This document shows positions 17,729 through 53,267 of a DNA stretch of 64,000 bases, in pieces (the stretch's first letter is position 1; each line of letters starts with the position of its first letter). The translations under genes and the position numbers were made by a program. The notes below the pieces were generated by a model. The model saw only the letters and a program-made list of their open reading frames with translations, was not told the DNA's origin and made no database searches. The DNA comes from a virus, in IMG/VR virus record IMGVR_UViG_3300009370_001603, positions 58,519 to 122,518 of that record; one strand, given 5' to 3'.

Positions 17729-20700
17729 TTACCACGCATTGAATGTATCAACCATTTTTCGCCACTGTCCGTTTAAGTAAGTAGCGAGATTATAATTACT
17801 TCCACTCTTTACTATACAAACCGTACCTTCTACTCGTGAAATCTCATATTTAGCAATAGTGCTGCTCGAATGCGTATACAACTGTCTAGTAGCACCGGTG
17901 CCGGTGGTATTTAAAGCTATGGGGAGCTGTAGGAAACCTTCAGCATTAACAATCGTGTTTGCAAAGTCATACTCATCGGTGGATGCCTGTATTTGGTCGG
18001 CAACCTGATAAGAGCTATACATCGTTGTCTTCAGGCCTGTTTTATCAGTTGAATGGTTTGCCAGTTTTAAAAGGTGGGCACTGAACTCTGCGGCAGTGGT
18101 CGGTTTTTTCCCGATCTGCGTTACCGCATTTGTATTGTGCTGGAAGAAACCCTTTCCGATAGCAACGACGTAATCTTCAGGTGAGGTACTAACCCACGAC
18201 GTGTTGTTCGTAGGTGTGTCGTTGTTAAGCACAATCGCACGATTTAATACCTGACCGCCACCAGCGTTGTAGCCGATGAGAGTATTATAAGCACCACATC
18301 CCGATATTCCAGCCTGATAGCCTATCATGATATTATTGCTGTGGACTGTGCTTGAAATTCTACCGTTGTACTGCTTACCGGCCTCGACCCCAATACTAAT
18401 TTGACGGGCAATCCCGCTAGAATAAGACCCTGCTTCCATGCCAATGCCAATATGCCTATTATATGATGAAGTCGAATCCTTGCCTTGAGCATGTCTCCCG
18501 GCATAGGGGCCGACGTATGTCGAATAATGCTGCCTATTCGCTTCCTCACCAGCTTTGTAGCCAATGACTGTAGCTTTTTCAGTTGTGGCCAGTAAGTATC
18601 CAGCCATGTGGCCCAGCATAGACGTTTCTTTATTACCGGAGGAATAAGCTCCAGCTCCATATCCTAGAAGCTGATTGTTAGATGCATTGTAGCTGTCTTT
18701 TCCTGCAAAGTAGCCAATCGCCACGTCGTTCCAGCTTCCATCCAGAGTGTCGGCCATACCGCTCGCGTTCTGCAATGCCTGCCTTCCGATTCCTACACAC
18801 CTATTCAGACCACTGGCTTGCTGGCCCGCAGTTTGGCCAATGAAAACGTTACCCTGTGTAAGTGATCCACGCTGATGACCCATATAGCCTTGCATAGACT
18901 CCCTGCCGATAGCTATATTTTCACTCATCCCATGGCTAGATTCACCAGCCTTGTAGCCCAACATAATATTATGCTTGTCTAGTACAGCAGATCGACCAGC
19001 ATAGTAGCCTATCGCAACGCTGTGTACCAGCGAGGAATCGAAAGTATACTGATAGGTTGTCCACCCTGACGACGATACGCCAGCTCCATAGCCAATATTA
19101 ACACCCCTGATCCCAGAGGAACCCATACCGGCTTCGTATCCTAGGTTGACAGAGCCGCCCATCCATGCGGAATCTTTCAAACTCCTTGTTCCTATAGCAA
19201 CCGCGTCCGTGTTCCCACTAGAGCTATAACCCGCGAGCGCACCAATGAAATTACCCTGTGTCGCCTTAAAGGAGTACGCACCAGCAGAATGACCGATGAA
19301 GTTAACAATGCCGCTACTTGGTACAGACCCCCCCATGCCAGATTGGGCAACGGCTTGGTATCCAGCTTCACGACCAATGATATTTGAGGATGCAAAACCA
19401 TGCGCTCCGGAACCAGCATAGTCACCGATAAAGTTGGTGTGGTTTGCACCTAAGACTTCTGCGGCAGCATATCTACCCATAGCATTACTATTGTTAATGC
19501 CGCTGCCATATAGTCCTGCTCGATTACCAATCATGTTGGTGTTAGAGCAGCCACTTGCGACACGTCCAGCATGGATACCTATAAAGTTAGAATTATCACA
19601 GCCGCTCGACTGTAAGCCAGCATCTCTCCCTATAAAGTTAGAGCTTTCAGAGTCGGCGTTGATATATGCTCCGGCGCGAGAGCCAACGGCCACAACGTAA
19701 CTATTACCACTAGAAGATGTTCCGGCGTTCGTTCCTATAAAGATACTTTGAATATTACCGCTAGAACTTTGGGCAGCTCCGCTACCAACCGCAATGGACG
19801 CATGACTTCCTCCGAGGGCATTGTGACCCGCAAGCCTTCCGATTGCCATTGCTCCGGAACCAATTGCTCCACTTACGGGACTAACGTCATCCGCCGTTCT
19901 AACTAAGCCGTCACTAAATGTAAGGGCGCTCGTATCAATACTACCCGCCGCAAAGCCAGAAACGGCTGCAATAGCTGTTTTTGATATTCCAGAAACGGCT
20001 GCTCCAGACGAATCTATCTCATACTGTAGATTGCCCGAAGCGAGGCCTGCACTAAAAATTAGGTGGTTACTTGAGGCTGTGTATTGGGTGGTAATACCAC
20101 TTATGCCAGAAATGTTAACGCCTTCTGAGCTACTAATATTGTCAAAATCTGTTAGGCCATCACTTAGTTTCCAGTGTCCATAACCGCCGCCTAAGCCGCC
20201 AATTTTATCGTTCACATACCCAGAGACTAAATTGACACCGACTTGTAATATACCAGAAGTTGCTTTATCGTGACCAAAAGCGAACCCAGAAACCGCAGTG
20301 ATTGCTGTGTTTGCTAAACCAGAGACTGCCGCGCCACTAGCATTTACAACCGCCTCAAGGCCGGAGGCGGAAAATTTCATTACATTTGAGCTTGAGTTGT
20401 ACCCAACGGTTACGTGGTCTACGCCGGAGAAATTAACTGTATTTGTAGAGGCTATAGCATCTGTACCACCCCCAACTCCAACTACCCAGTTGGCATAGTC
20501 AACAGCAGATCCAATTCTTCCATCAAGATATCCAGATAGTCCATTAGCAGTTACAGCAAATAGGTTGACATCGGAATGATATAATACTTCACACCCGCTA
20601 GCCCCGCTTATAAACACAGTATCTGCTGAGGATATAGTTTCGGGGGGATTCGTCGTGCCGTCACTAACCTTGAAAGAGTAATCTGTCGTATTGTCAATAC

Positions 20701-22630
20701 CATATTGAAGAATACCTGATAACTCAGAGGGGTCAAATATTATTCCCCCAGAAGGTGTAGTCGCTATGCCGCTTATGCCAACTGCAAGACCTCTTAGCCC
20801 ACTGAACGCAACCTCGGTGCCTTGGTGTATTTGGTGCGTGGTGTAGGCAAGTGTTGGATTAACATAGCCGGAAGAAATTGCTCCAACCTTAAACATGTTG
20901 CCAATCTGAAAAACTCTTCCGTCGTCAAGCGTTAGACCGCTTCCGCCCACATAAGCACCACTAACTACAGAGCTATCATTAAATATAAGGCCGCTAGTTG
21001 TAATGCCCAGCTTTTCATTATTAGATGTTGCGGCAGCCCATGTGTTCGAACCGCTTTTCCAAGTCCATTTTTTATCGCCAGTGTCTATAGCCCCATCGCC
21101 AGAGGATCTTATTACAACGCCTCCGTCATCAACAAGGTGGTCTACGCTGGAGGAAGAGTCATTGCCACTAGTAGAGGCTAGCTCCAACTGTTTGTCTTGA
21201 ATCGTAACATTCGTACTGTCATTATAGGTAGTGGTACCTTTAACAAAAAGATCACCACTGATTGTCACATCATTGCCAAAATAGGAATCTGTTCTGGCAA
21301 ATACGCCCCCGCTAGAATGTACATTGCTACCGTACGCAGTGTAAATATCTCCAGACGTAATAATATCGCCACTAACGCCAATGTTGCCGCCTCTAACGTC
21401 CAGTGAAAATATAGGGTCGTTCGCCCCAATGCCTACTCTGTTACTAGATTTTAAGAAAACAAACTTATCATCGTATGTGATAATGCCGCTTTCTTTATAG
21501 AGGGCTACGGAGCCAGCAGTAAGGGTGTCTGGATCTTCATCCATCGCCTTGTCTTGGACAACATATCGCGTGGAAAGATCGGGGATATCTTCTAGTTGTA
21601 AGTACCTAAAGGTTGGAACATCTGGGCTACAGCCAACCGCTTCGCATCCGCTCGGCGGACCGGAAAAAATCGTACCCTTCTCTTGTGGTAGGAAGCAAAA
21701 TCTTTCATCTACCACTCCGCTTAAAAAGAATACGGCATTTGTGCCGGTCGTACCATCTAACTCATTTCTAAAAAATGGCTCTAGCTGTGTGCCACCAGAG
21801 GCGGTTTTGGTTGCATCCTGCGGTAAGGCTTGGCCGCCAGAAAAGAGAACGCCAGAACCTCCATCAATAAAGCCAGAAGCCCTAACTTGAGAATAAGATC
21901 TAATACCCCCAATATCTATGGCATATTTAGGATCTGTTTGTGAGATACCAAGTCTAGCTCCAGAAACAGACCATAATATATTATCATCATAATTTAAAAG
22001 CTGTTCACTACCCCAAACCGCTAAACCGCTATTTTGTGGTTCCTTGAAGCCGCTTATGCCATAACCAGTAAATACTGAATATTTTCCGGGATAAGTTACG
22101 TAAACTTCTTTGATTCCAAAGTCTGGAAAATTAAACGGCTGCCCAGAGGCTACATAATCAACACCGCTAAGTCCGGCGTGAGAGGGTTCCGCATGGCCCG
22201 CATGGTTATTGGGCATGTAGAAGGTATTGCCATGATAGCCAGAGAAGGTATGTGTGTGAGCGCTGGTAGCTCCAGCGACTGCTAGTGCAGCAGACTTAGT
22301 TAAATACAGTGGGTGAAAATAACCTTGTTGCCCTCTTGTTGGGCCACTAGCGCTATCTCCATTTAAGTAGTAAGGGCCAGAATCTAAGGCAGAACTTCTT
22401 AATGGGAACCTTGTTAGCTCATTATCTGAGCCACTTTGTCTATATTCACCGGAACCCATCTCGTAATAGGTTCCATCGGTAGCAGCATAATAGACAACAT
22501 CTCCGTACTTGTAGAAATCACCAAAAGGGCTAAATCCAGCAAGCTCTCCGTCGAGAACAAACGGGTCTTGCCCCTTGGTGTGGGAAAGTTCTTTGATTCT
22601 GTCTGATAATACTACTATGTTGGAGTGCAT
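17729..22630 (-). CDS. Giant tail fibre with YadA-like head repeats
   Basis: A 1,633-residue fibre. Residues about 1-90 (DRIKEL, then YGDVVYYAATDGTYYEMGSG) resemble the N-terminus of the 1,589-residue fibre at 28405-33174, so both probably share a virion-anchoring domain. The middle is an elongated set of SG-rich beta segments (ASG, SGAAVSGL). Residues about 915-1490 carry many copies of an xNxxIGxxAGxxSSG unit, the type of left-handed parallel beta-roll found in trimeric adhesin heads such as YadA. The last 90 residues form a compact C-terminal domain (EGTVCIVKSG, then LNGQWRKM). It is probably a trimeric receptor-binding fibre; the trimer is inferred from the repeat type. Confidence 0.85.
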   Translation of the reverse strand: MHSNIVVLSDRIKELSHTKGQDPFVLDGELAGFSPFGDFYKYGDVVYYAATDGTYYEMGSGEYRQSGSDNELTRFPLRSSALDSGPYYLNGDSASGPTRGQQGYFHPLYLTKSAALAVAGATSAHTHTFSGYHGNTFYMPNNHAGHAEPSHAGLSGVDYVASGQPFNFPDFGIKEVYVTYPGKYSVFTGYGISGFKEPQNSGLAVWGSEQLLNYDDNILWSVSGARLGISQTDPKYAIDIGGIRSYSQVRASGFIDGGSGVLFSGGQALPQDATKTASGGTQLEPFFRNELDGTTGTNAVFFLSGVVDERFCFLPQEKGTIFSGPPSGCEAVGCSPDVPTFRYLQLEDIPDLSTRYVVQDKAMDEDPDTLTAGSVALYKESGIITYDDKFVFLKSSNRVGIGANDPIFSLDVRGGNIGVSGDIITSGDIYTAYGSNVHSSGGVFARTDSYFGNDVTISGDLFVKGTTTYNDSTNVTIQDKQLELASTSGNDSSSSVDHLVDDGGVVIRSSGDGAIDTGDKKWTWKSGSNTWAAATSNNEKLGITTSGLIFNDSSVVSGAYVGGSGLTLDDGRVFQIGNMFKVGAISSGYVNPTLAYTTHQIHQGTEVAFSGLRGLAVGISGIATTPSGGIIFDPSELSGILQYGIDNTTDYSFKVSDGTTNPPETISSADTVFISGASGCEVLYHSDVNLFAVTANGLSGYLDGRIGSAVDYANWVVGVGGGTDAIASTNTVNFSGVDHVTVGYNSSSNVMKFSASGLEAVVNASGAAVSGLANTAITAVSGFAFGHDKATSGILQVGVNLVSGYVNDKIGGLGGGYGHWKLSDGLTDFDNISSSEGVNISGISGITTQYTASSNHLIFSAGLASGNLQYEIDSSGAAVSGISKTAIAAVSGFAAGSIDTSALTFSDGLVRTADDVSPVSGAIGSGAMAIGRLAGHNALGGSHASIAVGSGAAQSSSGNIQSIFIGTNAGTSSSGNSYVVAVGSRAGAYINADSESSNFIGRDAGLQSSGCDNSNFIGIHAGRVASGCSNTNMIGNRAGLYGSGINNSNAMGRYAAAEVLGANHTNFIGDYAGSGAHGFASSNIIGREAGYQAVAQSGMGGSVPSSGIVNFIGHSAGAYSFKATQGNFIGALAGYSSSGNTDAVAIGTRSLKDSAWMGGSVNLGYEAGMGSSGIRGVNIGYGAGVSSSGWTTYQYTFDSSLVHSVAIGYYAGRSAVLDKHNIMLGYKAGESSHGMSENIAIGRESMQGYMGHQRGSLTQGNVFIGQTAGQQASGLNRCVGIGRQALQNASGMADTLDGSWNDVAIGYFAGKDSYNASNNQLLGYGAGAYSSGNKETSMLGHMAGYLLATTEKATVIGYKAGEEANRQHYSTYVGPYAGRHAQGKDSTSSYNRHIGIGMEAGSYSSGIARQISIGVEAGKQYNGRISSTVHSNNIMIGYQAGISGCGAYNTLIGYNAGGGQVLNRAIVLNNDTPTNNTSWVSTSPEDYVVAIGKGFFQHNTNAVTQIGKKPTTAAEFSAHLLKLANHSTDKTGLKTTMYSSYQVADQIQASTDEYDFANTIVNAEGFLQLPIALNTTGTGATRQLYTHSSSTIAKYEISRVEGTVCIVKSGSNYNLATYLNGQWRKMVDTFNAW
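18160..19890 (-). repeat. Coding beta-roll repeat array in the giant fibre
   Basis: Several dozen imperfect units encoding NxxIGxxAGxxSSG, diverged at the DNA level. YadA-type head repeats. Confidence 0.75.
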
Positions 22631-25189: not shown

Positions 25190-25741
25190 TTACCTATTGG
25201 TGTTGAGGTGGGGTAACTCACATCTTGGTATCTGACATTTATCACATATTTCGTGCCATCTATCGTTTAATTCTTCAAATTTGTAGACTTCCACACCAAG
25301 ATCTTCACCGTAATCCCCTTCTGTGAAAAACTGAGTGGTGTAAGGAGTCCAAGTGTCTCTTATGTTGTCTATGTAATCGTCTCGTCCAATAAATTCTTTC
25401 ATTTCTTCTGCGGTATTGGGGTTTTTATGAAAATCTGTACTTCTCAGGTGCTCTACCCATTTTATGGCGCTTTTAATTCTATCTTCCACGGATCTGTGAA
25501 TAGTGAATCTATAAATGTCTTTCCATTCTCTTATGTAGCCTTTAAGATTAACCCCTCTTTGATGTATCTCAACTCTATCGTATTGTTTTATCCAGCCGGG
25601 AATAGTGCTGGCGACAACCGGTATATTGTGTCTCAGGCAAACATTACTAATGGCGGATTTTACTGAGTGACCACCAGTTCTTGGTATGTGAATAAAGGCG
25701 GCTCTCTTGGGTAGGTATAACATGTCTAAAAACTTTCGCAC
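25190..25741 (-). CDS. Sulfotransferase-like protein, copy 2
   Basis: This 183-residue protein carries FIHIPRTGGHS at residues 16-26, the 5'-phosphosulfate loop of PAPS-dependent sulfotransferases of the Sulfotransfer_2/heparan 2-O type. It is followed by a mid-protein IHRSVEDRIKSAI segment, where the second 3'-phosphate-binding Arg/Ser is usual. It is about 180 residues, short for the family, so it may be a minimal enzyme. It is a tandem paralogue of the next gene upstream, with the same C-terminal IC(D)KCQIPRCxLP signature. The predicted reaction is transfer of sulfate from PAPS to a sugar hydroxyl; the substrate is unknown. It overlaps copy 1 by 16 bases. Confidence 0.75.
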   Translation of the reverse strand: MRKFLDMLYLPKRAAFIHIPRTGGHSVKSAISNVCLRHNIPVVASTIPGWIKQYDRVEIHQRGVNLKGYIREWKDIYRFTIHRSVEDRIKSAIKWVEHLRSTDFHKNPNTAEEMKEFIGRDDYIDNIRDTWTPYTTQFFTEGDYGEDLGVEVYKFEELNDRWHEICDKCQIPRCELPHLNTNR

Positions 25742-26271
25742 AATTTAGGTAGGGTGCATCTTGGGATTTGGCACTTATCACATATCATGTCCCATTGGAT
25801 ATTTAATTCATCAAAGTTGTATAGCTCAACCCCAAGATCCTCGCCGTGCTTTCCTTTTGTAAAAAATTCCGTTGTGTGGTCATTCCAGTTTTCTAAAATC
25901 CACTCTCTGTAGTCATCTCTGCACACCACTTCTTTAATTTCTTCATGAATATTTGGATGTGTACAGCTCCCCTTGTCTCTAACGTTTTCTATGAGTCTAA
26001 ACATGCTTTCAAATCTATCTTTTTGTGGTCTGTGAACTGCAAATCGGTAAATATCGTCCCATTCTTTTATGTATGGTTTTAAATTATAAGCCGTCTGATG
26101 ACCTTGGATCATTTCAAATTCTTTTATAAAGTTAGGAGTTGTGCTAATTAGGCACGCTATCCCATGTCCTACGCAACTACTCGCTATAGCATTTTTGATC
26201 GAATTGCCGCCAGTTCTTGGTATGTGTATAAACACCGCCCGTTTTGGCAGATATATCATAAAACTTCGCAC
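25726..26271 (-). CDS. Sulfotransferase-like protein, copy 1
   Basis: A 181-residue paralogue of the adjacent gene, with the PAPS loop FIHIPRTGGNS at residues 14-24, the segment FAVHRPQKDRFESMF, and the shared C-terminal CDKCQIPRCTLP motif with two cysteines. It overlaps the methyltransferase gene by 16 bases, exactly the overlap that it has with copy 2. The duplication therefore included the gene junction. The four overlapping genes (PRTase-HAD, methyltransferase, two sulfotransferases) look like one cassette for making or attaching a modified sugar. Confidence 0.75.
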   Translation of the reverse strand: MRSFMIYLPKRAVFIHIPRTGGNSIKNAIASSCVGHGIACLISTTPNFIKEFEMIQGHQTAYNLKPYIKEWDDIYRFAVHRPQKDRFESMFRLIENVRDKGSCTHPNIHEEIKEVVCRDDYREWILENWNDHTTEFFTKGKHGEDLGVELYNFDELNIQWDMICDKCQIPRCTLPKLCESF

Positions 26272-26816
26272 ATGTAACTTGGGAACTTTTCTATCGTAAT
26301 TCCTATCATCTTCATGTCGCCACTTTGAATCCTTTCGTTAACAGCTCTGATAACACCAGCTCGCCAAACTTGACAGTTGGTAACATAGTCATGTCCCATT
26401 ATTAAACCGCCCTTTCTGACTTTCCGTAGTGCACTTTCAATTTCCATCGCAACCGGCTTGTAATCATGGCAGGCATCTATATAGACCCAATCTAAGCAGT
26501 CATCTTCTAGGCTGGATAAAAAGGTGGCTCCCCACTGTCTAACGATCTCTACCTTTCCATTTTTAATTTCTCTTGAAAATAGTGAGCTAACTAAATCTCG
26601 GTGGTCGTCCTCCCATAATTCAGGTTCTGCAATGAGGCCTAAATTTGGATGACGCTCTCTCCAGACATCGCAAAGGTACATCTTTATAGGTTTTGTTATG
26701 TGCCATAAATTTATAGCACCCGCCCCTTTGCAGACTCCAATTTCTGCCCCTACTCCGTCTTTCGGTACATCTAAAAACATTTCTTGAGATGTCTCGTATT
26801 CTATAATTCTTTCCAT
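26256..26816 (-). CDS. Class I SAM-dependent methyltransferase
   Basis: A 186-residue Rossmann methyltransferase of the Methyltransf_24 type. Motif I is GAEIGVCKGAG (about residues 23-33). The segment DWVYIDACHDYKPV (about 109-122) and KGGLIMGHDY complete the fold and supply the acidic/His residues that bind metal in O-methyltransferases of this group. It probably methylates a sugar or other small acceptor. Its start shares one base with the stop of the PRTase-HAD gene, and its end overlaps the first sulfotransferase, so all four are co-translated. Confidence 0.8.
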   Translation of the reverse strand: MERIIEYETSQEMFLDVPKDGVGAEIGVCKGAGAINLWHITKPIKMYLCDVWRERHPNLGLIAEPELWEDDHRDLVSSLFSREIKNGKVEIVRQWGATFLSSLEDDCLDWVYIDACHDYKPVAMEIESALRKVRKGGLIMGHDYVTNCQVWRAGVIRAVNERIQSGDMKMIGITIEKFPSYMCEVL

Positions 26817-27886
26817 TATGCAAATTTTCCTTCATCTGGACAAATAATCGTTGTTTCAAAGGCTTTTTCTCTCATGACCCTAGCTTCTGATGGTTCACTC
26901 TCAATATAATAACACGGTGGGAATCTGCTGACGACTTTAGCCTTAAAGCTTGCAGCCTCGTTGATATGGTCCGCATCTCTTTCTTTCTCTCTCTCGGTGG
27001 GGAACATAATTAGATTCTCATATGCCACGTCGTATTTCTTTAGCCATGCCTTGGTGATGTCTTTATATTTTTCAAGCCTTGCTGTTATGATACCCTTGCA
27101 CTTGTATGTCGTTGGCAATCTGTGATACAGGGGTTCCACATTTGTTATATAATCAATATATTTTTCTTCGTCTAGTGTGCATTCGTAGGGTACGTTGGGG
27201 CATAGTATTCCATCAAAGTCCAAGAAGGAATTTTCCACATACGAACTATTAAAGAAATTCCACTCTAGTAGGTGTGGAGGATCTAGGATCTCACCATAAA
27301 CATCTACGTCGCTGGGTCGGCTTGAATGAACGTAAACTACGCCATATACAACGTCATCTCTTTTACCGACAATTTCTCTTGTATTCTTTATTGCGATGCC
27401 ACCATAAAGCGTGTCATCAAGAATAAGTATTTTTCCATCGCCCTCTTCATAATTCTGCATCCTGAACCCACCGAATTTGCTTAGTGCAGAAAGCGGTGAT
27501 ATGTTACCTTCTTTGTCGAAAGAGTATATAGGAACATTCAACCACATCGCCACTATACTAGCGGGAAATACTCCTGACCTAGGAATTCCGGCTACACCCT
27601 TTAGGTTTAAACGTCCTAATTTGGGTAATAGCTTGGTCTTAATTACATGCATCATATTGTTGATGGTAATAAATTTTCCGCACAACCTGTATGACTGTCT
27701 GTCATGTTTTTTATCAACCTGTTCTTTGTACCAAATCCTTTCCTCTGGTGTGGCATCTTGACACCATTGCCAGTTGGGTGGGATAGCCGACATATTCTGT
27801 GAATAAAAACTGCAAAACCCCGGCTTTGAACATTCACACTTGTTCATAACCTGCTTTGCGTCAAACCTTAATTTTTTCTTTTCCAT
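26816..27886 (-). CDS. Phosphoribosyltransferase-HAD phosphatase fusion with Cys-rich N-terminus
   Basis: The 356 residues have three parts. Residues 10-60 hold a C-x-C-x(4)-GFC-x(n)-WCQ cluster that could bind zinc; I have seen such a leader on phage glycan-related proteins. Residues about 70-215 are a type I phosphoribosyltransferase with the PRPP loop KILILDDTLYGG near residue 155. Residues about 220-350 are HAD-like, with motif I FLDFDGIL near 225 and a second motif IITAR. PRTase-HAD fusions are known near sugar-nucleotide genes. The substrate is not evident. It heads the overlapping methyltransferase-sulfotransferase cassette. Confidence 0.75.
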   Translation of the reverse strand: MEKKKLRFDAKQVMNKCECSKPGFCSFYSQNMSAIPPNWQWCQDATPEERIWYKEQVDKKHDRQSYRLCGKFITINNMMHVIKTKLLPKLGRLNLKGVAGIPRSGVFPASIVAMWLNVPIYSFDKEGNISPLSALSKFGGFRMQNYEEGDGKILILDDTLYGGIAIKNTREIVGKRDDVVYGVVYVHSSRPSDVDVYGEILDPPHLLEWNFFNSSYVENSFLDFDGILCPNVPYECTLDEEKYIDYITNVEPLYHRLPTTYKCKGIITARLEKYKDITKAWLKKYDVAYENLIMFPTEREKERDADHINEAASFKAKVVSRFPPCYYIESEPSEARVMREKAFETTIICPDEGKFA

Positions 27887-27889
27887 GTA

Positions 27890-28405
27890 TTACTCCACAA
27901 ACGCCATAAACGCACCACCCAAATCTCTAGTGAAGGTGTGGGGTGCCTTGCCGGGAGATCCTGAGCTACCCTCTCCATCTGGTAGGTCGCAAGGGGAATC
28001 GTCTCCACTACTAGCACTGTCCGTTATATATTTCACCCAGAGGGTTGTGTTGTTAACTCGTTTCACAACTTTGTAGGTATATATGGACTCCCAATTTTCA
28101 GCGTCTAAATCATACGGCTCCCCCAGTGCCACCTCCATTTTATAAGCAGTAACCCAATCGCCAACCATCACCGTTGCGTTGTTGGCGGCACTGTAGACCA
28201 CTTGGTAGATTGGGCCATTTGAATCGGTCTCATCGACTGATCCACCATGAATAGCTGAAGCGTCTTCTTGCCAGTCACCAAGCCCCTCTTCGGATTGATC
28301 AGCACTGGCAGAGCAGGAAGATATAGCTAAATCGGTAGCTACCGTTATCCTCTGCCTTCCGGTTGCTGAATATATAGGATCGTGTGGTACGGGATAATTT
28401 GGCAT
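27890..28405 (-). CDS. Fibre-linked structural protein, 171 residues
   Basis: A beta-rich protein with the polar Ser/Gly/Asp stretch DLPDGEGSSGSPG near the C-terminus and a repeated WESIYTYKVVKRV / TTLWVKYITD strand pair. It begins at the last base of the 1,589-residue fibre gene, so it is coupled to it and may be a fibre connector or chaperone. I do not recognise the family. Confidence 0.6.
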   Translation of the reverse strand: MPNYPVPHDPIYSATGRQRITVATDLAISSCSASADQSEEGLGDWQEDASAIHGGSVDETDSNGPIYQVVYSAANNATVMVGDWVTAYKMEVALGEPYDLDAENWESIYTYKVVKRVNNTTLWVKYITDSASSGDDSPCDLPDGEGSSGSPGKAPHTFTRDLGGAFMAFVE

Positions 28406-31400
28406 TAGTCTGGTAAGTCCTGACCTATAATAAATCCATCAAATGCAGTACCGGCAGCGTTCGTGCAAAGAAATCCATAAACGTCTGTATGCCCAGTGTT
28501 GGTTGTCATGGTAGGAATTGTGTTTCCAGCCCATCTGACGGTTGCACCACCACCGGTAGTATTGTAGTCAACATCAGTCCAAGCTACTGTAGCTGCTGTT
28601 TCGCCATCGGCTACTTGTGTAATTCTCAAAATAAACTTTTGACCTCTTGTTCCATTTGTGAACTCAATCTTTGTTACATTTGTGTTATCAGTTAATACCA
28701 CATTGAAAAGATTGCTTTGCTTCAAATCAAGACTGATAGTAGCACCCGAATCATCATTGGACTCATTCAATGCTTTTGGAGAATCGTTGGCGTGATGGAA
28801 CTCATTCACGATATTCCCAACTAGCGTAAGTCTGTCGTGGCTTTCATCCCACAATAAGTATTTGCCCGAAGTAGCGCCGAACAATTTCACGTCATGCCCT
28901 GTGTCATCAACACCAACTGTAAGGCTGCCAGCCAAGGTTAACCCAGCACTTGCTAGCGTCATCAAGTCAGTGTCGCTCGTATGGCCGATTGTAGTGCCAT
29001 TTATGCTAACGTTATCGACTGTTAGTGCAGTAAGAGTACCTAGCCCAGTAATATTTGATTGGTTTGCAACAGATACTAGCCCTGCATTTGTTAAAGCTGC
29101 CGTACTACCCATAGTGAGCGTGCCTGCTATGGTTGTGGTCGATGCGGCACCAGCCCCAAGTGTTACATCAACTTCACCGTCAGCGTCAGCTTGCCCAGCA
29201 AGTACCAATCCCGCCGTTAAATTGGCATCGTTTTCTGCTACATAAAATCTAAGCGATGCAGCCTCAGAAGTATGTGCTGAGTCTGTAATAATTGCGTCTA
29301 TATACGCTAATCTTTCGTGTGTATTTTCAGCAGCATCAGTACCATAGAAAGATATTAATCCCATGACATCACTATCGTCACCAGACGCACTATCTTTATT
29401 AAATCTTAATTCGCCAGCAGTCGCCCCAGCGTGTGTATTTGTAATATGAAATATGGGCTTACTAGCAGAAGAGGATGTTAAGGTTAATTCGTCCGAGGCG
29501 TAGGTAAAGTTAGCTTCAGAGGCAAACGTATTATCACTAGTAACCCATGTAATAATTCCATTGTCAGTATCGCCAGCAACAGATCTTGAACTACCCCCAC
29601 CAGCAGAGGCCCATGATATATCAGTACCGTCAGACGTTAAAACATAAGTATTACTTCCAATAGCTAAAGCGGCAGGGTCTCCACTCGAATCTCCGATAAT
29701 TATACTGCCTCTAGTAAGGCCCGCCATCTTAGCAAGGGTTACTTGATCATCAGCTATATGGGCGGTATCAATCGACCCATCTACGTAGTGTTCTGAATTT
29801 ATAACATCGTCTTGTATGTTATCTCCATCAACACAATCTGCCGCTAAGTGAACGTGATCGATAGAACCATCTTTGTAGTGAACACTATCAATGCCATCTT
29901 CTAAGAGAGTTAATATTTCTCCAGCGGTCTGGTCTGCTGTAGCACCATCTTCTACATTAATCATAGTGCGCAAACTAGCAGGACTAATCTCTTCAATTAC
30001 TCCGGCACCCGCTGAATCTCTACCTAAGATTTTATCTGTAGCACTGACATTTTGTATCTTAGCATAGCTGATGGCGTCATCTGCCACCATGTCTGTAGCA
30101 ACCTGTACTTCTCCAATAGCTCCAGCACTGGCCGCTCCTAAAACTCTATTAGCAGTACCGGTGTGCTGCATTTTAGCATAAGTAACAGCGTCATCGGCTA
30201 TCATGGCGGTAGCAACCTGTACTTCTCCGATAGTACCAGCGGTAGCAGCACCTAATAATCTATTGTCAGCGCTAGTGTCTTGCATCTTGGCGTAGGTTAC
30301 AGCGTCGTTGGCTATGGTACTTGTAATTGAGATGCCTGCCGAACCATCGAAGTTTGCTGTGCCTGTTACGTCTCCAGCTAGCGCTATAGCTCTTGCAGTG
30401 GTAAGGGTAGCTGCGCTACCAGTAGTATTTTGGTTAAGTGTGCCAATTGTAATATTTATCTCTGTATCTGGGGTTTCTGCAACACCAAAGTCGGACGAGA
30501 AGTCTAGGGTAACTATATCTGAACCGCCAACGGCAGAGCCATTAGACTTGACGCTAGTCATGCTGCCGCCGCCCCCTCCGCCTCCGGCATTCTCTACCCA
30601 AGTAAATTTACCGGTAGCAATATCGTAAGATGGGACATAGTTGTCCGTGGGAGTATTTGTGGCTAAAAGATTAGCTCCACTAACTGCGGCTTGGAATGCT
30701 TTTCCGTGAAGTTCTATTCCGGAACCCGCCGAGAAATTTCCACTCGCACTGTTTGTTGTAATCTCATTAAGCAGGAAATCGCCGGAAGCATTTATTGCAT
30801 TAACGTTCACGGTTCCGCTGGCTGAATTAGCTCTAATCTCTGTTAAGTTAGCAGCTCCAGAAGCTGAGTTAGCCCTGATTTCGGTGAGGTTGAAGTTGCC
30901 ACTCGCTGAGTTAGCTCTGATCTCGGTAAGGTTGGCAGCTCCAGAAGCTGAATTGGTTTGGATTTCCCCAAGCCAGAACACGCCCGAGTTATTAATTGCG
31001 CTGGCATTTGTTACTCCGCTGGCTGAGTTGGCTCTAATCTCTGTTAAGTTAGCAGCCCCAGAAGCTGAGTTAGCTCTGATCTCGGTAAGGTTGAAGTTGC
31101 CACTGGCCGAATTGGCTCTGACTTCTGTGAGATTTGAACTTCCACTAGCAGAATTAGTCTGTATCTCCCCGAGTAGGAAATCCCCAGAGGCGTTTACAAG
31201 ATTGGTGTTAGAAACCCCGCTGGCACTATTGGCTCGTATTTCAGTTGTGTTTGCAGTTATGAGACTAGTAAGTGTGGTGGAGATGTTTGCATCATCATTA
31301 ATTGCAGCAGCTAGTTCGTTGAGAGTATCTAGGGCTGCGGGGGCACTATCAATAAGATTGGCCACCTTCATGTTTGCATAGCCTTGAGCATATCCTGAGA

Positions 31401-33174
31401 TGGAGGCTCCACTAGCTGAATTGACAGTTATTTCTCCAAGAAGGAAATCGCCCGAAGAATGAACTAGATTTGTATTAGTAACGCCGCTGGCTGAGTTAGC
31501 CCTTATTTCGGTAAGATTTGAGTTTCCACTAGCCGAATTGGATCTTATCTCGGTGAGGAAATAATCCCCAGAAGAATAAGGTAGGCCACCGCCGCCCGCT
31601 GATGCTACACCAGAAATAACCAGTCCACTAGCTGAATTGGCCCTAACCTCATCTAATAGCATATTCCCCGAAGAATTTATAGATAAAGTGTTATTATTTA
31701 TATTAGTATTTCTTGTTATCCCACTATCTGAATTAGCTATAATTTTAGTGAGAAGTGAATTACCGGAAGCATGAATGAGATTAGTATTTGATGTAATATT
31801 AGTAGAATTTGTATTTCCACTGGCAGAGTTAACTACTATTTCACCAAGTAAGAAATCGCCCGACGCATGGACAAGGCTTGTATTCGCCGTTATGTTCGTC
31901 GCATTGGTATTTCCACTCGCAGAGTTTGCGCGAATTTCGTCAAGATTATATGTAATTTTACCGCCACTGGCTACTGGCAGGGCGCTACCGGTTGAAGCGG
32001 CTATACCGGAAACGACTAGTAGGTCTGATGCGTTAGTGGTCCCACTAGCTGAATTTGACCTAATTTCATCTAAGAAATAATCTCCCGAAGCGTGTGTAAG
32101 AGCATCTATGCCAACCGCTGTTAGTCCAGAAACAAGTAATATGTCTGCTGTATTTTTTGTTATCTGGGGCTGTAGGGCACCACTAACAGCTGTAGCTGAG
32201 TGGTCTTGGTTGTCTGTATAGTATTTTGCCCAACCGCTGACAGCAACCCCACTCGTAGTGTTGTTTTCAATATTTGTCAGTACATTATGGCCCGAAGCAA
32301 ATAAAGACCCCGTAGCTGTAATTGTGCGAGCGGAAAGATCTCCATCCTTATCTATCTTGGCAAGAACAATGTCGGAACTATTAGTCCATTCTTGTAAATT
32401 TGCTGATTGGGCAGATGCACCCTTGACTCTAAAAGCAGGTTGGGAAGTAGTATAAGATGTAGCAAGAAAGCCAGTATCGCTATTTGACTCAAAAACAGTA
32501 TTGCCTTTGTGGGCTACATTAAAGCCCCCACCATGGGTTAAATTAATGCTGGTTAGAGAATTTGAGTACAAGCCAATGTTGCCATCTCCAGCGTAAACGT
32601 AAGCGTAGGTCGGCGGATCTCCGGAGTTATTAGGAGAATCTTTAAGGCCTAGCTTCCAGTCTGGCGATACGGTACCATCATGATACAGCGATATAGTCTC
32701 ATCATTAGAGTCATCTACATAAGCATGGAAGAAATTACCGGCACTGTCACGCTTAAGTGTTAACAGACCACTAACGCCCAGATCCCCACGCACATCTAGT
32801 GTGTTGGAAACCTCTAGGCCAGAAGCAATCGTTAGGCCAACAGATATATTTGCTTGACCGTCCTCATCTAGAAAAACAGCTTTACTCGCGGGATACGAAC
32901 AAAACACATAAGAGACACCACTAAGATCGATCTTAGAGCCACTATTAGAGCTTGACAGAACAGTATCTCTAGAGAGGGTATTGCCCACCTCAGTATATGT
33001 ACCTATACCAATCTCGAAGTTTGTCCCGTTTTCAATAACGTAATATGTGGTATTGCCGTTACCTATTCCGGCAGAGAAAGAGACAAAACCACCAAACGCA
33101 CCGGCGAGCGTGACGCTCCCAGTGCCGCTTGTGATTGATGTTTCTTTTACCCTATCTGTTAGAATCAGACCCAT
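28405..33174 (-). CDS. Giant tail fibre with EIRANSASG repeats
   Basis: A 1,589-residue fibre. Residues about 1-90 (DRVKETS, then TTYYVIENGTNFEIGIGTYT) form an anchoring domain shared with the 1,633-residue fibre. Residues about 360-820 are a long array of 13-residue units of the form NLTEIRANSASG alternating with SGDFLLGEI units, compatible with a trimeric coiled-coil or beta-spiral stalk. A six-Gly linker follows, then AKMQ/IGEVQVATxMIADDA repeats. The C-terminal domain (TKIEFTNGTRGQKF, then DGFIIGQDLPD) is a compact tip type found in many environmental phage fibres. The protein is probably receptor-binding. Confidence 0.85.
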   Translation of the reverse strand: MGLILTDRVKETSITSGTGSVTLAGAFGGFVSFSAGIGNGNTTYYVIENGTNFEIGIGTYTEVGNTLSRDTVLSSSNSGSKIDLSGVSYVFCSYPASKAVFLDEDGQANISVGLTIASGLEVSNTLDVRGDLGVSGLLTLKRDSAGNFFHAYVDDSNDETISLYHDGTVSPDWKLGLKDSPNNSGDPPTYAYVYAGDGNIGLYSNSLTSINLTHGGGFNVAHKGNTVFESNSDTGFLATSYTTSQPAFRVKGASAQSANLQEWTNSSDIVLAKIDKDGDLSARTITATGSLFASGHNVLTNIENNTTSGVAVSGWAKYYTDNQDHSATAVSGALQPQITKNTADILLVSGLTAVGIDALTHASGDYFLDEIRSNSASGTTNASDLLVVSGIAASTGSALPVASGGKITYNLDEIRANSASGNTNATNITANTSLVHASGDFLLGEIVVNSASGNTNSTNITSNTNLIHASGNSLLTKIIANSDSGITRNTNINNNTLSINSSGNMLLDEVRANSASGLVISGVASAGGGGLPYSSGDYFLTEIRSNSASGNSNLTEIRANSASGVTNTNLVHSSGDFLLGEITVNSASGASISGYAQGYANMKVANLIDSAPAALDTLNELAAAINDDANISTTLTSLITANTTEIRANSASGVSNTNLVNASGDFLLGEIQTNSASGSSNLTEVRANSASGNFNLTEIRANSASGAANLTEIRANSASGVTNASAINNSGVFWLGEIQTNSASGAANLTEIRANSASGNFNLTEIRANSASGAANLTEIRANSASGTVNVNAINASGDFLLNEITTNSASGNFSAGSGIELHGKAFQAAVSGANLLATNTPTDNYVPSYDIATGKFTWVENAGGGGGGGSMTSVKSNGSAVGGSDIVTLDFSSDFGVAETPDTEINITIGTLNQNTTGSAATLTTARAIALAGDVTGTANFDGSAGISITSTIANDAVTYAKMQDTSADNRLLGAATAGTIGEVQVATAMIADDAVTYAKMQHTGTANRVLGAASAGAIGEVQVATDMVADDAISYAKIQNVSATDKILGRDSAGAGVIEEISPASLRTMINVEDGATADQTAGEILTLLEDGIDSVHYKDGSIDHVHLAADCVDGDNIQDDVINSEHYVDGSIDTAHIADDQVTLAKMAGLTRGSIIIGDSSGDPAALAIGSNTYVLTSDGTDISWASAGGGSSRSVAGDTDNGIITWVTSDNTFASEANFTYASDELTLTSSSASKPIFHITNTHAGATAGELRFNKDSASGDDSDVMGLISFYGTDAAENTHERLAYIDAIITDSAHTSEAASLRFYVAENDANLTAGLVLAGQADADGEVDVTLGAGAASTTTIAGTLTMGSTAALTNAGLVSVANQSNITGLGTLTALTVDNVSINGTTIGHTSDTDLMTLASAGLTLAGSLTVGVDDTGHDVKLFGATSGKYLLWDESHDRLTLVGNIVNEFHHANDSPKALNESNDDSGATISLDLKQSNLFNVVLTDNTNVTKIEFTNGTRGQKFILRITQVADGETAATVAWTDVDYNTTGGGATVRWAGNTIPTMTTNTGHTDVYGFLCTNAAGTAFDGFIIGQDLPD
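30780..32110 (-). repeat. Coding repeat array (EIRANSASG) in the giant fibre
   Basis: Tandem 39-base units encoding NLTEIRANSASG-like 13-residue repeats, interspersed with FLLGEI units. DNA similarity is strong between units near 30830-31140, so slippage or recombination could change stalk length. Confidence 0.8.
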
Positions 33175-47559: not shown

Positions 47560-49536
47560 TCAGTATAAATTTTCCATATTATCGGTGAACCAATTCGGCC
47601 CAGAATACATGTTGCCTTTATTGTCAGTCTTTTCTACCGTTGCGAATCCACCATAGAATTTGTATTCTTCGGGTGTGGGTATCCTAGACAGAGTTCTGGC
47701 TGCCATATTTGCCATTAATAGTGCAGAATAACGGTCTTTCCTAAGCTTGCCCTTTTTGCCTGTTCCAATTACAGTCTCTGGAGTATCCCACTTATCTCTA
47801 CCTGTAGGAGTTTGGGTTATCTGTATCATTGTAAGTTCATCCTTAAGGTCTTCAATTTCCATAACGCACTGCTCCAGTGTGTCGAAATTTCTACCTTTTA
47901 GGCCGTCTTCAGCATTAGCAATGCCCAGACTGATCGTGTCGAACATTGGAAATAAGAGAACTTTATCCTCAAAGTCTTTTCTCATCCCGTGGTTGGCTTC
48001 AGCGAGCCAATCGTACTTTGAAAACTGACACATTTCTAGTATATGAAGTCCTCTTTCGTCGTCCGTGTCCTTTGGTTTGTCGTCATCTATCGTTGGCCAT
48101 ATTGCAAGTTCATCTGGCTGTATTTTATCCTTATCGTGAAGAGATTCCATTACGGCTATACCACCACCTCCGGCGTCCATAGATATATGTATGCATGGGA
48201 ATATTCTCATTAAATCTCTAATTTTTCTGGCGCAATAAGAATAGAAATCAGTTTCTGAAGAGAACCCGCTTTTTACCTTTTCTTTGTGTTGCTCTCGATT
48301 GGTAGTCCAGCAGTGTACTATTTTACGATGATCTAGACCAACTTCTAGAACTACAATGCTAAAATTATCGACCTCTGAAGCTGGATCGACGCCATATATA
48401 TACTTTTTGTTGGAATCCCCACGTAGCTGGGCTTGAAAGCACACCTCTTTGTCCTCAGAGTCTTTTAGCCTTCCGTCGTCACTCGTTACGCAGCTTTCTA
48501 TTAAGGTACGCTTGAAGAAGCCGTGAGAATCGCGTGTAAAGCACGCTCCGTATTCCATCTGATAAATTCCAGCATGAACCGTAGCTTTTGATCTGGCGAC
48601 CTGTGAGGCGTCCATGAAGCCCTCTGGCAAAAGTTCGTAGGGGACTCTTATAATTGAATAATCTTCCCAATTAAAATCTCGCGGTGGATCTTCCCCGAAA
48701 ATTTCTTTTAGCCTCCCGGCTTTCCCTTGGCTTTGTATGATAGACTTCCATTTTTTCCAGTATTCAGCGAAATGATTGAAGTCATAATAGGCGGTGCCGG
48801 ATATAATTATTTGGTTGTCAATTTTCCTTAGTGTGTCCTCATTGTTCGAAATCATCTCTATACCAAGCTCGGCGGCCTTTTTTTCAGACGCTATTCTTTT
48901 AACATTTTCAATTGGGTCGGAGCTAACGGCGGCAAAACCTGCAACAACCGTTTCGAAAATTTCTCTCGGGATACTTCCGAATTCATCACCGATAATATCA
49001 TTTGCGCGTTGACCACGAATTTTCTGACCGTCACCTAGGGGTAGGCAGGTAACGCGAGACTTGTTAATTCGCATTACACATCTATCCACGTCTCTGCGTG
49101 GGCCACTGCTAGCATCGCACATGCTTCTCAAGATTGGGGCGTTGTTCCAGATGGTCTCCATATACTCAAACAATACCTTAGATTGACGAAAGGCAGCTCC
49201 AACAACCACCACTTTTCTTTCTGGCATTATCAACGCTCTCATCATTGCATATAAAGATAGTATAAAAGATTTCCCAAAACCACGACTCGCTATAAGCATT
49301 GGGAACTTGCGATTCCACATCTCATATAGAAATAGAGCTTGAGACGGTAAGAGGGTAATATTAAATATATGCTTGCATAGAAAAGAGAAGTACTCTGGTC
49401 TAGTCATGAGCCAAAGTATCTTGTAATGTGCGTTGTCTTCGCTAAACTTTATAATATCAAACGGATTTGAAAGATCAGACTCTTTTATTCCGTCAATATT
49501 TAACCAAGCGTCATTTAGTTTTTTTAGTTTGCTCAT
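47560..49536 (-). CDS. terL: Terminase large subunit
   Basis: A 658-residue packaging motor. Walker A is IASRGFGKS near residue 84, Walker B is DIIGDEF near 183, and the C-terminal RNase H-like nuclease has YGVDPASE near 382, HISMDAGGGG near 452 and a late Asp near 602 (KDRYSALL). These are the ATPase and nuclease signatures of tailed-phage terminases. It overlaps the membrane hydroxylase gene by four bases and precedes the portal gene. Confidence 0.93.
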   Translation of the reverse strand: MSKLKKLNDAWLNIDGIKESDLSNPFDIIKFSEDNAHYKILWLMTRPEYFSFLCKHIFNITLLPSQALFLYEMWNRKFPMLIASRGFGKSFILSLYAMMRALIMPERKVVVVGAAFRQSKVLFEYMETIWNNAPILRSMCDASSGPRRDVDRCVMRINKSRVTCLPLGDGQKIRGQRANDIIGDEFGSIPREIFETVVAGFAAVSSDPIENVKRIASEKKAAELGIEMISNNEDTLRKIDNQIIISGTAYYDFNHFAEYWKKWKSIIQSQGKAGRLKEIFGEDPPRDFNWEDYSIIRVPYELLPEGFMDASQVARSKATVHAGIYQMEYGACFTRDSHGFFKRTLIESCVTSDDGRLKDSEDKEVCFQAQLRGDSNKKYIYGVDPASEVDNFSIVVLEVGLDHRKIVHCWTTNREQHKEKVKSGFSSETDFYSYCARKIRDLMRIFPCIHISMDAGGGGIAVMESLHDKDKIQPDELAIWPTIDDDKPKDTDDERGLHILEMCQFSKYDWLAEANHGMRKDFEDKVLLFPMFDTISLGIANAEDGLKGRNFDTLEQCVMEIEDLKDELTMIQITQTPTGRDKWDTPETVIGTGKKGKLRKDRYSALLMANMAARTLSRIPTPEEYKFYGGFATVEKTDNKGNMYSGPNWFTDNMENLY

Positions 49537-49985
49537 ATTTTTGTTTTGAATATATAATCAGTCCAAAGGAAAACCACCCCAAAGTTTTTTGATGGTCTTC
49601 TATGATGTTTAAGGTGATGGTCTTTAGCTTTATGGTAATATTCTGTTTTGGTTATCCAGTGATCCTTGATGTCGTGAATCGCCCTATGCATATGTGTCCA
49701 TACATACGAGTGATAATAAAATATAGCCAAAAGGCAAAGCGTTGACGTTAAGCCAAAATAAGTAGATGCTAATATTAAAGGTGAACCAAGTGTAAGGTGT
49801 ATGTAAAAAGGTAAGTCTATATTTAGATCGTGTCGGTTGTCGCGGTGGTGGTAGATAGCGTGGTGTTTCCAGATCCACTCTGGGATTATTACCAGTTTTT
49901 TGTGCATCGTATATCTGTGTATAAGGTATTCTGCGAATGCCATTACAAAATACCATATTGTTAACCAAGCTAAAATCTCATACAT
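49533..49985 (-). CDS. Membrane fatty-acid-hydroxylase/desaturase-like di-iron protein
   Basis: A 150-residue protein with two to three hydrophobic spans and the histidine boxes of the fatty acid hydroxylase superfamily: H-R-Y-T-M-H near residue 24, H-H-A-I-Y-H-H near 41, H-M-H-R-A-I-H near 98 and H-H-L-K-H-H near 124. These would hold two irons at the membrane face and oxidise a lipid or carotenoid. Members include CrtZ-type hydroxylases. The protein is short but all His boxes are present. It lies between a ClpP-like gene and terL, so it is made with late proteins. Substrate unknown. Confidence 0.8.
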   Translation of the reverse strand: MYEILAWLTIWYFVMAFAEYLIHRYTMHKKLVIIPEWIWKHHAIYHHRDNRHDLNIDLPFYIHLTLGSPLILASTYFGLTSTLCLLAIFYYHSYVWTHMHRAIHDIKDHWITKTEYYHKAKDHHLKHHRRPSKNFGVVFLWTDYIFKTKI

Positions 49986-51409: not shown

Positions 51410-51648
51410 GGTGTAAACATTTTCTTAATTGAAACGTCGGCCAAGATATCTTTCATCTCTCCGGCCATTTCGGGTTCCTGTTGTAGTATTAATCCTGCAA
51501 GCTTGTAGTAGCACTTGTAACATGCGTCATCAGGGTTTTCAGCCTCAACAAAAATTATAGGATTGTCGCTATTAAATTCTTTTAGGGATATTTTTCTTAG
51601 TCTGGAAATTACCAGTGAAAGATCTAGGGTTATCTTGTAAAGTTTCAT
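51406..51648 (-). CDS. Small protein between gmd and HNH, 80 residues
   Basis: A short alpha/beta protein (YKITLDLSLVISRLRKISLK, then DDACYKCYYKLAGLILQQEP) with a C-Y-K-C pair. Both ends are joined by ATGA overlaps to gmd upstream and HNH downstream. No family recognised. Confidence 0.6.
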   Translation of the reverse strand: MKLYKITLDLSLVISRLRKISLKEFNSDNPIIFVEAENPDDACYKCYYKLAGLILQQEPEMAGEMKDILADVSIKKMFTP

Positions 51649-52718
51649 CTTTTGTCGTGGTCTACCATCATTTTGACCAAGTCGTCAAACGAGTTTCGTG
51701 GTTCCCAGCCTAATTTGTTGCGAGCTTTTTCGTTTTGACCTCTTAGGTAATCTACTTCTGCTGGCCTATAGAACTCTGGGTCTTGAACTACAAGCTCAGA
51801 CCAGTCTCCCACGCCAATATGTTTAAATGCCACGTCTAGGAACTCACGAATAGTATGTGTATTACCGGTGCAGATGACATAATCTTCTGGACTGTCCTGT
51901 TGAAGCATCATCCACATCGCCTCCACGTAATCTCCCGCATACCCCCAGTCACGAAATGCTTCCAAGTTTCCTAAACGTAGCTTTGGAAAAGTTTTGACCT
52001 CATTATATTCTACTCTATATAACAAATTGGGATCTGGCTCGAAGGTAATCTCGTGAACTCCGGGTGTGAGTCTTACACCCCCTTGTCTCCATTTGTGATA
52101 TTCTCCAATCCACTTTGTTATTTTTCTTGTTACAAAGGATTCTCCGCGTCTTGGACCCTCGTGATTAAATAGTATGCCAGCACTCGCGTGTAAGCCGTAG
52201 CCTTCACGGTATAATCTTGTTATGTAGTGGGCGGCGCACTTAGCTATAGCGTAAGGAGACTGGGGTAGAAACTTAGTATTTTCGTTTTGATACTTGTTTT
52301 GTTCTCTATCGATGTCGTAGCTTTTTCCAAACATCTCGCTACTACTAGCTTGATAGAATCTGACCCCTAACATTTCGCGGTCAACTATGGATTGTAAGAT
52401 ATTGAGACAACCTTTACCCGTTATATCCCAAGTCAAGGCTGGCTGCTTAAAAGACACTGCTACATGGCTTTGAGCGGCTAAATTGTAGATTTCATCTACA
52501 TCAGCGTGTTCTTTTAGAATGTTATTGATAGAATGCGCATCGGTGATGTCGCCCTGAATTAACTTGAGTCTTTTATCATCAAGAATATGTTTGATTCTCT
52601 CTGTATTATCAGTGCTAGACCTTCTGCATACACCAACAACTTGATAGTTCTTCTCTAGTAATAGGTCGGCCAGATGGCTACCGTCTTGTCCTGTTATTCC
52701 GAAAATAATAGCTTTCAT
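51645..52718 (-). CDS. gmd: GDP-mannose 4,6-dehydratase
   Basis: A 357-residue short-chain dehydrogenase/reductase. The NADP loop is FGITGQDGSHLADLL at the N-terminus. The sequence GVCRRSSTDNTERI, NLAAQSHVAVSF, the catalytic SSSEMFG and Y-AIAK, and NHEGPRRGESFVTRKI are hallmarks of GDP-mannose 4,6-dehydratases. It converts GDP-mannose to GDP-4-keto-6-deoxymannose, the branch point to fucose, rhamnose and perosamine. No epimerase/reductase partner is in the window, so the sugar must be finished by host or other genes. It lies next to a sialyltransferase-like enzyme and a methyltransferase. Confidence 0.93.
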   Translation of the reverse strand: MKAIIFGITGQDGSHLADLLLEKNYQVVGVCRRSSTDNTERIKHILDDKRLKLIQGDITDAHSINNILKEHADVDEIYNLAAQSHVAVSFKQPALTWDITGKGCLNILQSIVDREMLGVRFYQASSSEMFGKSYDIDREQNKYQNENTKFLPQSPYAIAKCAAHYITRLYREGYGLHASAGILFNHEGPRRGESFVTRKITKWIGEYHKWRQGGVRLTPGVHEITFEPDPNLLYRVEYNEVKTFPKLRLGNLEAFRDWGYAGDYVEAMWMMLQQDSPEDYVICTGNTHTIREFLDVAFKHIGVGDWSELVVQDPEFYRPAEVDYLRGQNEKARNKLGWEPRNSFDDLVKMMVDHDKR

Positions 52719-52729
52719 TGTTTTCCTTG

Positions 52730-53266
52730 TTAATTTAAAAATAAAACTTTACCCTGATTGGACAGTTCCTTTATGATCTTATACTCTTCTTTTGGGTTGT
52801 GTAGTTTACCTCTTGTTTCATTATCTGCGTAGTGGTGTTTTTCTCTTTCCCACCAGTCAAAACCTGTAATAAAAACTTGACCAAACCTTTCCATCATCAT
52901 ATATATTGCTATCAGACCGGTGCTAGGCGCCCTAACGGGTATACTTCTAACAAACGCCCTGTCTGTTTTATGGCAATACTTACCCGCGAATCCGCAGGGG
53001 TATTTGTTTTCAGAAAGCTTATGGTAAATCTTGCATTTGCTCTTATCCCATTCCCAGCTATGAACAATAATTTCGTCAAAGGTCTCCATGTCTGCCATGT
53101 GTGAAGCGTTGACAGTAAACCATATGTTTGTTTTTGTACCAGTGTAGTCCTCGTAGCCATCCAGTTTGAAACTGTTGAATCTTAATACTGTGTCGAACCC
53201 ATCAATTTTGTATCCATTTTTATTATCTGTTATAGATGTTCCATTGCCCACTATAACTAGACTCAT
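52730..53266 (-). CDS. GT29 sialyltransferase-like enzyme
   Basis: A 178-residue protein with the sialyl motif L-like start VIVGNGTSI, GFDTVLRFNSF near residue 25, and the motif S-like PSTGLIAIYMMMERF with FITGFDWWE and the downstream HHYADN (motif III/VS His). GT29 enzymes move sialic acid from CMP-sialate; short bacterial and phage members may use other donors. It is a minimal single-domain copy without a membrane anchor, so cytoplasmic action on a sugar or virion protein is inferred. Confidence 0.75.
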   Translation of the reverse strand: MSLVIVGNGTSITDNKNGYKIDGFDTVLRFNSFKLDGYEDYTGTKTNIWFTVNASHMADMETFDEIIVHSWEWDKSKCKIYHKLSENKYPCGFAGKYCHKTDRAFVRSIPVRAPSTGLIAIYMMMERFGQVFITGFDWWEREKHHYADNETRGKLHNPKEEYKIIKELSNQGKVLFLN

Positions 53267-53267
53267 A

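What the first reader, a model, noticed from the sequence alone, without database searches (positions are those of the whole stretch)
25190..26271. Tandem sulfotransferase-like genes in a phage
Two adjacent paralogues with the PAPS loop FIHIPRTGG and a shared CDKCQIPRC ending. Sulfotransferases are rare in phages in my knowledge. They are located among fibre genes, suggesting sulfated glycans or tyrosines on the virion, or modification of the host surface to block superinfection.
Basis: partly seen in the sequence, partly recalled or inferred. Interest (0 to 1): 0.75.

Follow-up and report, generated by a model that had tools for sequence, protein, structure and literature searches.

The report
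Phage sulfotransferase pair in fibre operon
An uncultured phage carries two sulfotransferase-like genes directly behind a tail-fibre gene, in a recurring cassette with a predicted ribose-adding enzyme and a methyltransferase, which suggests that these viruses build a sulfated sugar decoration whose target (fibre or host surface) is still unknown.

Summary
Confirmed: two 177-aa paralogues (54% identical; likely ATG starts at 25723 and 26259) close a tightly packed gene run behind a long fibre gene. They match PHROG 3347 (galactose-3-O-sulfotransferase, 1e-12 and 4e-9) but no Pfam or NCBIfam family. PAPS-site motifs are present in all 19 family members compared; the best fold matches are sulfotransferases, on medium-quality models. 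Sulfotransferases in phages are already reported, so that part is not new.

What appears undescribed is the cassette. Two genes upstream lies a protein joining a PRPP-type phosphoribosyltransferase to a HAD phosphatase, the plan of bacterial ribofuranosyltransferases. Searching with that protein alone, 25 of 28 non-redundant relatives with its N-terminal Cys module have a sulfotransferase-type gene within 2.5 kb, against 3 of 28 without. The sulfotransferase belongs to several diverged groups, switching about 8 times on the tree. In some phages the PRTase-HAD is fused to a glycosyltransferase. No PRTase-HAD relative was found in 50,697 GenBank phage records.

Best reading: a glycan-decorating module that ribosylates, sulfates and methylates an acceptor using host PAPS. 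Activity, substrate and target are not shown. A 769-bp tract over the pair is identical to a phage that is otherwise 74% identical.

The parts
25190..25723 (-). Sulfotransferase-like copy A, 177 aa (ATG start; listed by the ORF finder from GTG 25741)
   Evidence: PHROG 3347 1.1e-12; motifs; start choice
25726..26259 (-). Sulfotransferase-like copy B, 177 aa (ATG start overlapping the methyltransferase stop; listed from GTG 26271)
   Evidence: PHROG 3347 3.6e-9; motifs; start choice
26256..26816 (-). Class I SAM methyltransferase, 186 aa, in the same gene run
   Evidence: Pfam Methyltransf_24 3.4e-14
26816..27886 (-). PRTase-HAD protein, 356 aa: N-terminal Cys module, PRPP-type phosphoribosyltransferase, HAD phosphatase
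   Evidence: Invariant PRPP-loop DDT and HAD DxDG residues; PDB profile hits to purine PRTases 1.8e-5 and to Pnkp1 0.026; PHROG polynucleotide kinase 1.3e-4 on the HAD part
27890..28405 (-). 171-aa protein of unknown function between fibre and PRTase-HAD, conserved at this place in many relatives
28405..33174 (-). Long tail-fibre-like protein, 1589 aa, upstream in the same gene run; C-terminal part conserved in relatives
25493..26261 (.). 769-bp tract identical to the L001 phage contig (rest of the two genomes 74% identical where aligned)

Best explanation
The two genes encode small cytoplasmic PAPS-dependent sulfotransferases that act at the end of a phage glycan-decorating cassette made together with a tail fibre. 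Proposed order: (1) the PRTase-HAD protein transfers ribose-5-phosphate from PRPP onto an acceptor and removes the phosphate, leaving a ribofuranosyl group, as the bacterial gPRT-PRP ribofuranosyltransferases do; (2) the methyltransferase and the two sulfotransferases cap that group or a neighbouring sugar, using host SAM and PAPS; two copies would serve two positions or acceptors. I favour the fibre of the same gene run as the acceptor over host envelope glycan, by roughly 3 to 2. Shown: the genes, family assignment, intact motifs, gene packing, and a repeated PRTase-sulfotransferase partnership. Inferred: PAPS use, ribosylation, order of steps, acceptor.
For: PHROG 3347 hits. PAPS-loop, R-x7-S and C-terminal Cys motifs in 19 of 19 family members, window pair included. 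Best PDB fold match is sulfotransferase 3rnl, prob 0.89; many of the top BFVD matches are viral sulfotransferases. Packed gene run from the fibre gene to copy A; PRTase-HAD next to or one to two genes before the sulfotransferase in all 16 relatives whose gene order was listed. A search seeded on the PRTase-HAD alone found a sulfotransferase-type gene within 2.5 kb in 25 of 28 non-redundant relatives with the Cys module and 3 of 28 without (Fisher p=3e-9). These genes form several diverged groups; representatives of three groups just pass the Pfam cut-off for Sulfotransfer_1 or _2, others hit PHROG 3347; the group changes about 8 times on the PRTase tree. Other partners are glycan-type enzymes: PS_pyruv_trans, radical SAM/SPASM, weak GT8, cytidylyltransferase-like. 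In L054, L065 and L072 the PRTase-HAD is fused in one chain to that GT8-like glycosyltransferase (E 1e-54 to 1e-105). Dual-domain gPRT-PRP precedent: PMC11127046, PMC11231755. No strongly hydrophobic segment in the cassette proteins, so they look cytoplasmic.
Against: Models are medium quality (mean pLDDT 68.7 and 65.0) and the PDB fold match is not significant alone (E=0.02). The proteins lack the C-terminal tail of other sulfotransferases. The PRTase part resembles purine PRTases and no ribofuranosyltransferase is among its PDB hits, so nucleotide salvage is possible. No APS kinase was found in 15 phage records and the host is unknown. Ser-Gly enrichment of fibres, looked at as an acceptor signal, does not clearly track the cassette.
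Confidence: 0.5

Rival explanations
1. The cassette modifies host envelope glycan during infection, for example to hide the receptor and block superinfection or keep released virions from sticking to debris. The sulfotransferases then act on host lipopolysaccharide or capsule precursors in the cytoplasm.
For: Partners are of kinds used in bacterial surface polysaccharide synthesis (PS_pyruv_trans, GT8-like, cytidylyltransferase-like), and the gPRT-PRP precedents build O-antigens and capsules. The window also carries GDP-mannose dehydratase and a GT29-like gene.
Against: Position directly behind a fibre gene in the same packed run in many phages, and no membrane or export partner seen in the cassette. 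Late expression would leave little time to remodel the envelope (inference).
Confidence: 0.3
2. The enzymes make or modify a small molecule or nucleotide (PRTase-HAD in purine or nucleoside chemistry, sulfotransferase on a small metabolite), with the fibre neighbourhood only a convenient insertion site for cargo genes.
For: PRTase part is closest to purine and xanthine PRTases, HAD part to polynucleotide-kinase phosphatases.
Against: Fusion of PRTase-HAD to a GT8-like glycosyltransferase and the glycan-type partners.
Confidence: 0.12
3. The pair are P-loop proteins of the sulfotransferase fold that no longer transfer sulfate (changed P-loop residue, missing C-terminal tail), kept for binding or for another transfer.
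For: Arg where the P-loop Lys is usual, compact length, unusual C-terminal Cys triad; no Pfam match.
Against: 3'-phosphate Arg and Ser and a central His are invariant, purifying selection, and replacement at the same place by Pfam-recognised sulfotransferases. Arg at that P-loop place is, from my own knowledge, normal in tyrosylprotein-sulfotransferase-like enzymes.
Confidence: 0.08

Closest known systems
PHROG 3347, phage galactose-3-O-sulfotransferase-like family
   Same: Both copies match most of the profile; same PAPS motifs
   Different: Own subfamily with C-terminal CxKCxIPxC triad that ends soon after LPxLN; no relative in 50,697 GenBank phage records by tblastn
Sulfotransfer_2 (PF03567) carbohydrate sulfotransferases
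   Same: Order of PAPS loop, conserved His and R-x7-S fits that family as I know it; hhalign to a classical sulfotransferase from a MAG contig aligns both motifs, P=2.4e-5
   Different: No Pfam match in 19 members; about 175 aa; Arg in the PAPS loop where Lys is usual
Bacterial dual-domain ribofuranosyltransferases (gPRT-PRP; Klebsiella O4/O7, Haemophilus type b) for the upstream gene
   Same: PRPP-dependent transferase plus HAD phosphatase in one protein among glycan genes (PMC11127046, PMC11231755)
   Different: PRTase part purine-PRTase-like by profile; extra Cys module; phage fibre locus; sulfotransferase partner

Membership tests
PAPS-dependent sulfotransferase superfamily | 5'-PSB (PAPS) loop near the N terminus | tested here: met
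   [FV]IH[IV]PR[TA][GA]GxS[IV] in 19 of 19 members; Arg at the usual Lys place
PAPS-dependent sulfotransferase superfamily | 3'-phosphate-binding Arg and Ser eight residues apart | tested here: met
   R83 and S91 of copy A invariant
PAPS-dependent sulfotransferase superfamily | Sulfotransferase fold | tested here: inconclusive
   Medium-quality model; best PDB match is a sulfotransferase but E=0.02; many viral sulfotransferases among top BFVD matches, only one match below 1e-3
PAPS-dependent sulfotransferase superfamily | PAPS binding and sulfate transfer | not testable with these tools
   Needs an enzyme assay
PHROG 3347 | Profile match over most of the family length | tested here: met
   Profile positions 9-184 and 8-180 of 219
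Pfam and NCBIfam sulfotransferase families | Match over the curated cut-off | tested here: not met
   No sulfotransferase family matched in 19 members with Pfam, nor for the pair with NCBIfam
Dual-domain ribofuranosyltransferase (upstream gene) | PRPP-type transferase domain with intact PRPP loop | tested here: met
   D157, D158, T159 invariant; purine PRTase hits 1.8e-5
Dual-domain ribofuranosyltransferase (upstream gene) | HAD phosphatase domain in the same chain | tested here: met
   D223, D225, T268, K315, E329, E331 invariant; PHROG polynucleotide kinase 1.3e-4
Dual-domain ribofuranosyltransferase (upstream gene) | Sequence kinship with characterised gPRT domains | tested here: not met
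   PDB profile search lists purine-type PRTases and Pnkp1 only; it may work like one but is not filed as one
Dual-domain ribofuranosyltransferase (upstream gene) | PRPP-dependent ribosylation of a glycan | not testable with these tools
   Needs an enzyme assay

The most novel reading that the evidence does not exclude
An undescribed phage module in which a PRTase-HAD ribosyltransferase and an interchangeable sulfotransferase decorate the phage's own tail fibre with sulfated, methylated ribose, the sulfotransferase gene being swapped between phages to change the decoration.
Probability: 0.25. Interest if true: 0.85.

Novelty: new variant of a known kind. Interest (0 to 1): 0.55.

Why it matters
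[quoted passage not shown] A recurrent partnership of a PRPP-type transferase, a phosphatase and a sulfotransferase in fibre loci gives a concrete pathway that can be tested with purified enzymes, and would point to sulfated pentose chemistry on virions or infected cells. Swapping of sulfotransferase types and the 769-bp identical tract suggest that the decoration is exchanged between phages.

Tried and rejected
Pfam and NCBIfam gave no usable assignment of the pair; weak RE_AccI and SecA hits were taken as chance. PDB sequence search of the pair gave only ubiquitin and one cilia protein at E 0.06 or worse. No relatives of copy A or of the stretch 25190-28405 in GenBank phages, none of 25400-26270 in plasmids. 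APS kinase and PAPS-reductase-family genes were not found in 15 phage records, some of them fragments. Ser-Gly enrichment of fibres as an acceptor signal was dropped: modest and not clearly linked to the cassette. Promoter- and terminator-like sites were no more than shuffles give. The SAR202 MAG contig L019 was not taken as a host assignment: of 293 other genomes of that class only one had a match, a weak one, and the contig may be misbinned. A larger alignment (other copy) did not give a better model. A first regular expression for sulfotransferase motifs found nothing and was dropped for profiles; a first Cys-module pattern was mistyped and redone.

Full report
Two minus-strand ORFs lie at 25190-25741 and 25726-26271, 54% identical over 179 aa, with FIHIPRTGG near the start and CDKCQIPRC near the end. 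Several orthologues begin at M(I/L)YLP, so the likely starts are ATG 25723 and ATG 26259; the first follows the stop of the upstream copy by two bases, the second overlaps the methyltransferase stop as ATGA.

Identity. Both match PHROG 3347, galactose-3-O-sulfotransferase, at 1.1e-12 and 3.6e-9. Pfam and NCBIfam do not recognise them. In 19 family members, window pair included, the PAPS-loop motif, an R-x7-S 3'-phosphate motif and a C-terminal CxKCxIPxC motif are always present, and one His between the first two is invariant. The residue that is usually Lys in the loop is Arg. hhalign against a classical sulfotransferase from another contig of a SAR202 MAG aligns both motifs, P=2.4e-5. AlphaFold2 models are medium quality (pLDDT 68.7; 65.0). 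The family stops soon after LPxLN and lacks the C-terminal tail of other sulfotransferases.

Setting. On the minus strand the order is fibre (33174-28405), 171-aa protein, PRTase-HAD, methyltransferase, copy B, copy A, with gaps or overlaps of a few bases. In the 16 relatives from IMG/VR and one MAG whose gene order I listed (several are near-copies of each other), the sulfotransferase always follows a PRTase-HAD gene directly or after one or two genes. Eleven have the methyltransferase before it; a second clade (L006, L007, L015, L017, L018) lacks that gene and has a pyruvyltransferase-like and a radical SAM/SPASM gene after it. The tandem occurs in the window, L001 and L010, in the same order. 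Copy A, its two orthologues and the single gene of L030 form a well-supported clade, so the duplication predates the split of these phages.

Partnership. The PRTase-HAD search did not use the sulfotransferase, yet it recovered it. Of 79 PRTase-HAD proteins, 57 remain at 90% identity. With the N-terminal Cys module, 25 of 29 have a sulfotransferase-type gene within 2.5 kb; one of the four without ends at a contig end, giving 25 of 28. Without the module it is 3 of 28 (Fisher p=3e-9). The genes belong to several diverged groups: representatives of three just exceed the Pfam cut-off for Sulfotransfer_1 or Sulfotransfer_2 and others hit PHROG 3347. One representative (L031) has no family hit of its own and is placed by similarity to L033. 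On the PRTase tree the group needs about 8 changes, though strongly supported branches force fewer, and some rows sit on long branches. I first recognised these groups by eye in the neighbour sequences and then tested them with profiles; clusters are related to one another, so the p-value overstates independence.

Mechanism. A PRPP-dependent transferase plus a HAD phosphatase in one protein is the plan of bacterial ribofuranosyltransferases, which add ribose-5-phosphate and then remove the phosphate (PMC11127046, PMC11231755). The phage protein keeps the catalytic residues of both domains, but its PRTase part is purine-PRTase-like by profile; I say that it may work like those enzymes, not that it is one. 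In L054, L065 and L072 it is fused to a GT8-like glycosyltransferase, and the Cys module also heads such a glycosyltransferase without a PRTase in L117; that favours sugar transfer. The likely sequence is ribosylation, then sulfation and methylation. PAPS must come from the host if these records are representative: no APS kinase was found in 15 phage records.

Target. Packing with the fibre gene and the absence of hydrophobic or export partners in the cassette make the fibre my first choice, by about 3 to 2 over host envelope glycan. No experiment and no sequence signal decides it.

Exchange. The window's genome and G001 (the L001 contig) are 74% identical over 66 kb of aligned DNA; the only exact run above 120 bp is 769 bp, window 25493-26261, covering copy B and the first part of copy A. 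A 46-base probe from it found no other IMG/VR contig. Recent recombination is likely; an assembly chimera is not excluded.

Known versus new. Sulfotransferases in phages are known (PHROG 3347; PMC10580990, PMC8290583) and their function is called unclear. The PRTase-HAD partner was not found in 50,697 GenBank phage records by tblastn, nor was copy A, and the literature searches gave no description of the module; preprints and most subscription journals are not covered, so this is a statement about what I could search.

Noticed in passing
window 25493-26261: 769-bp tract identical to phage contig IMGVR_UViG_3300030419_003589, which is otherwise 74% identical where it aligns; recent recombination or assembly chimera.
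   Followed up: partly
window 51645-53876: Second sugar gene group: GDP-mannose 4,6-dehydratase (PF16363, 1.6e-113), GT29 sialyltransferase-like gene (1.4e-18) and a methyltransferase.
   Followed up: no
window 49533-49985: Fatty acid hydroxylase-like gene (PF04116, 1.3e-12) between the terminase large subunit and a Clp-protease-like gene.
   Followed up: no
L019 (VFHP01000007.1) and L022: A SAR202 MAG holds a contig with the same cassette and a second contig, phage-like by eye, with a classical sulfotransferase beside sugar genes; possible host hint or misbinning.
   Followed up: partly
L054, L065, L072, L117: GT8-like glycosyltransferase fused to PRTase-HAD, or headed by the same N-terminal Cys module without a PRTase; role of the Cys module unknown.
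   Followed up: partly
window 17729-22630 and 28405-33174: Very long fibre-like proteins with SSG- and NSASG-type repeats; Ser-Gly about 2.4 times expectation.
   Followed up: partly
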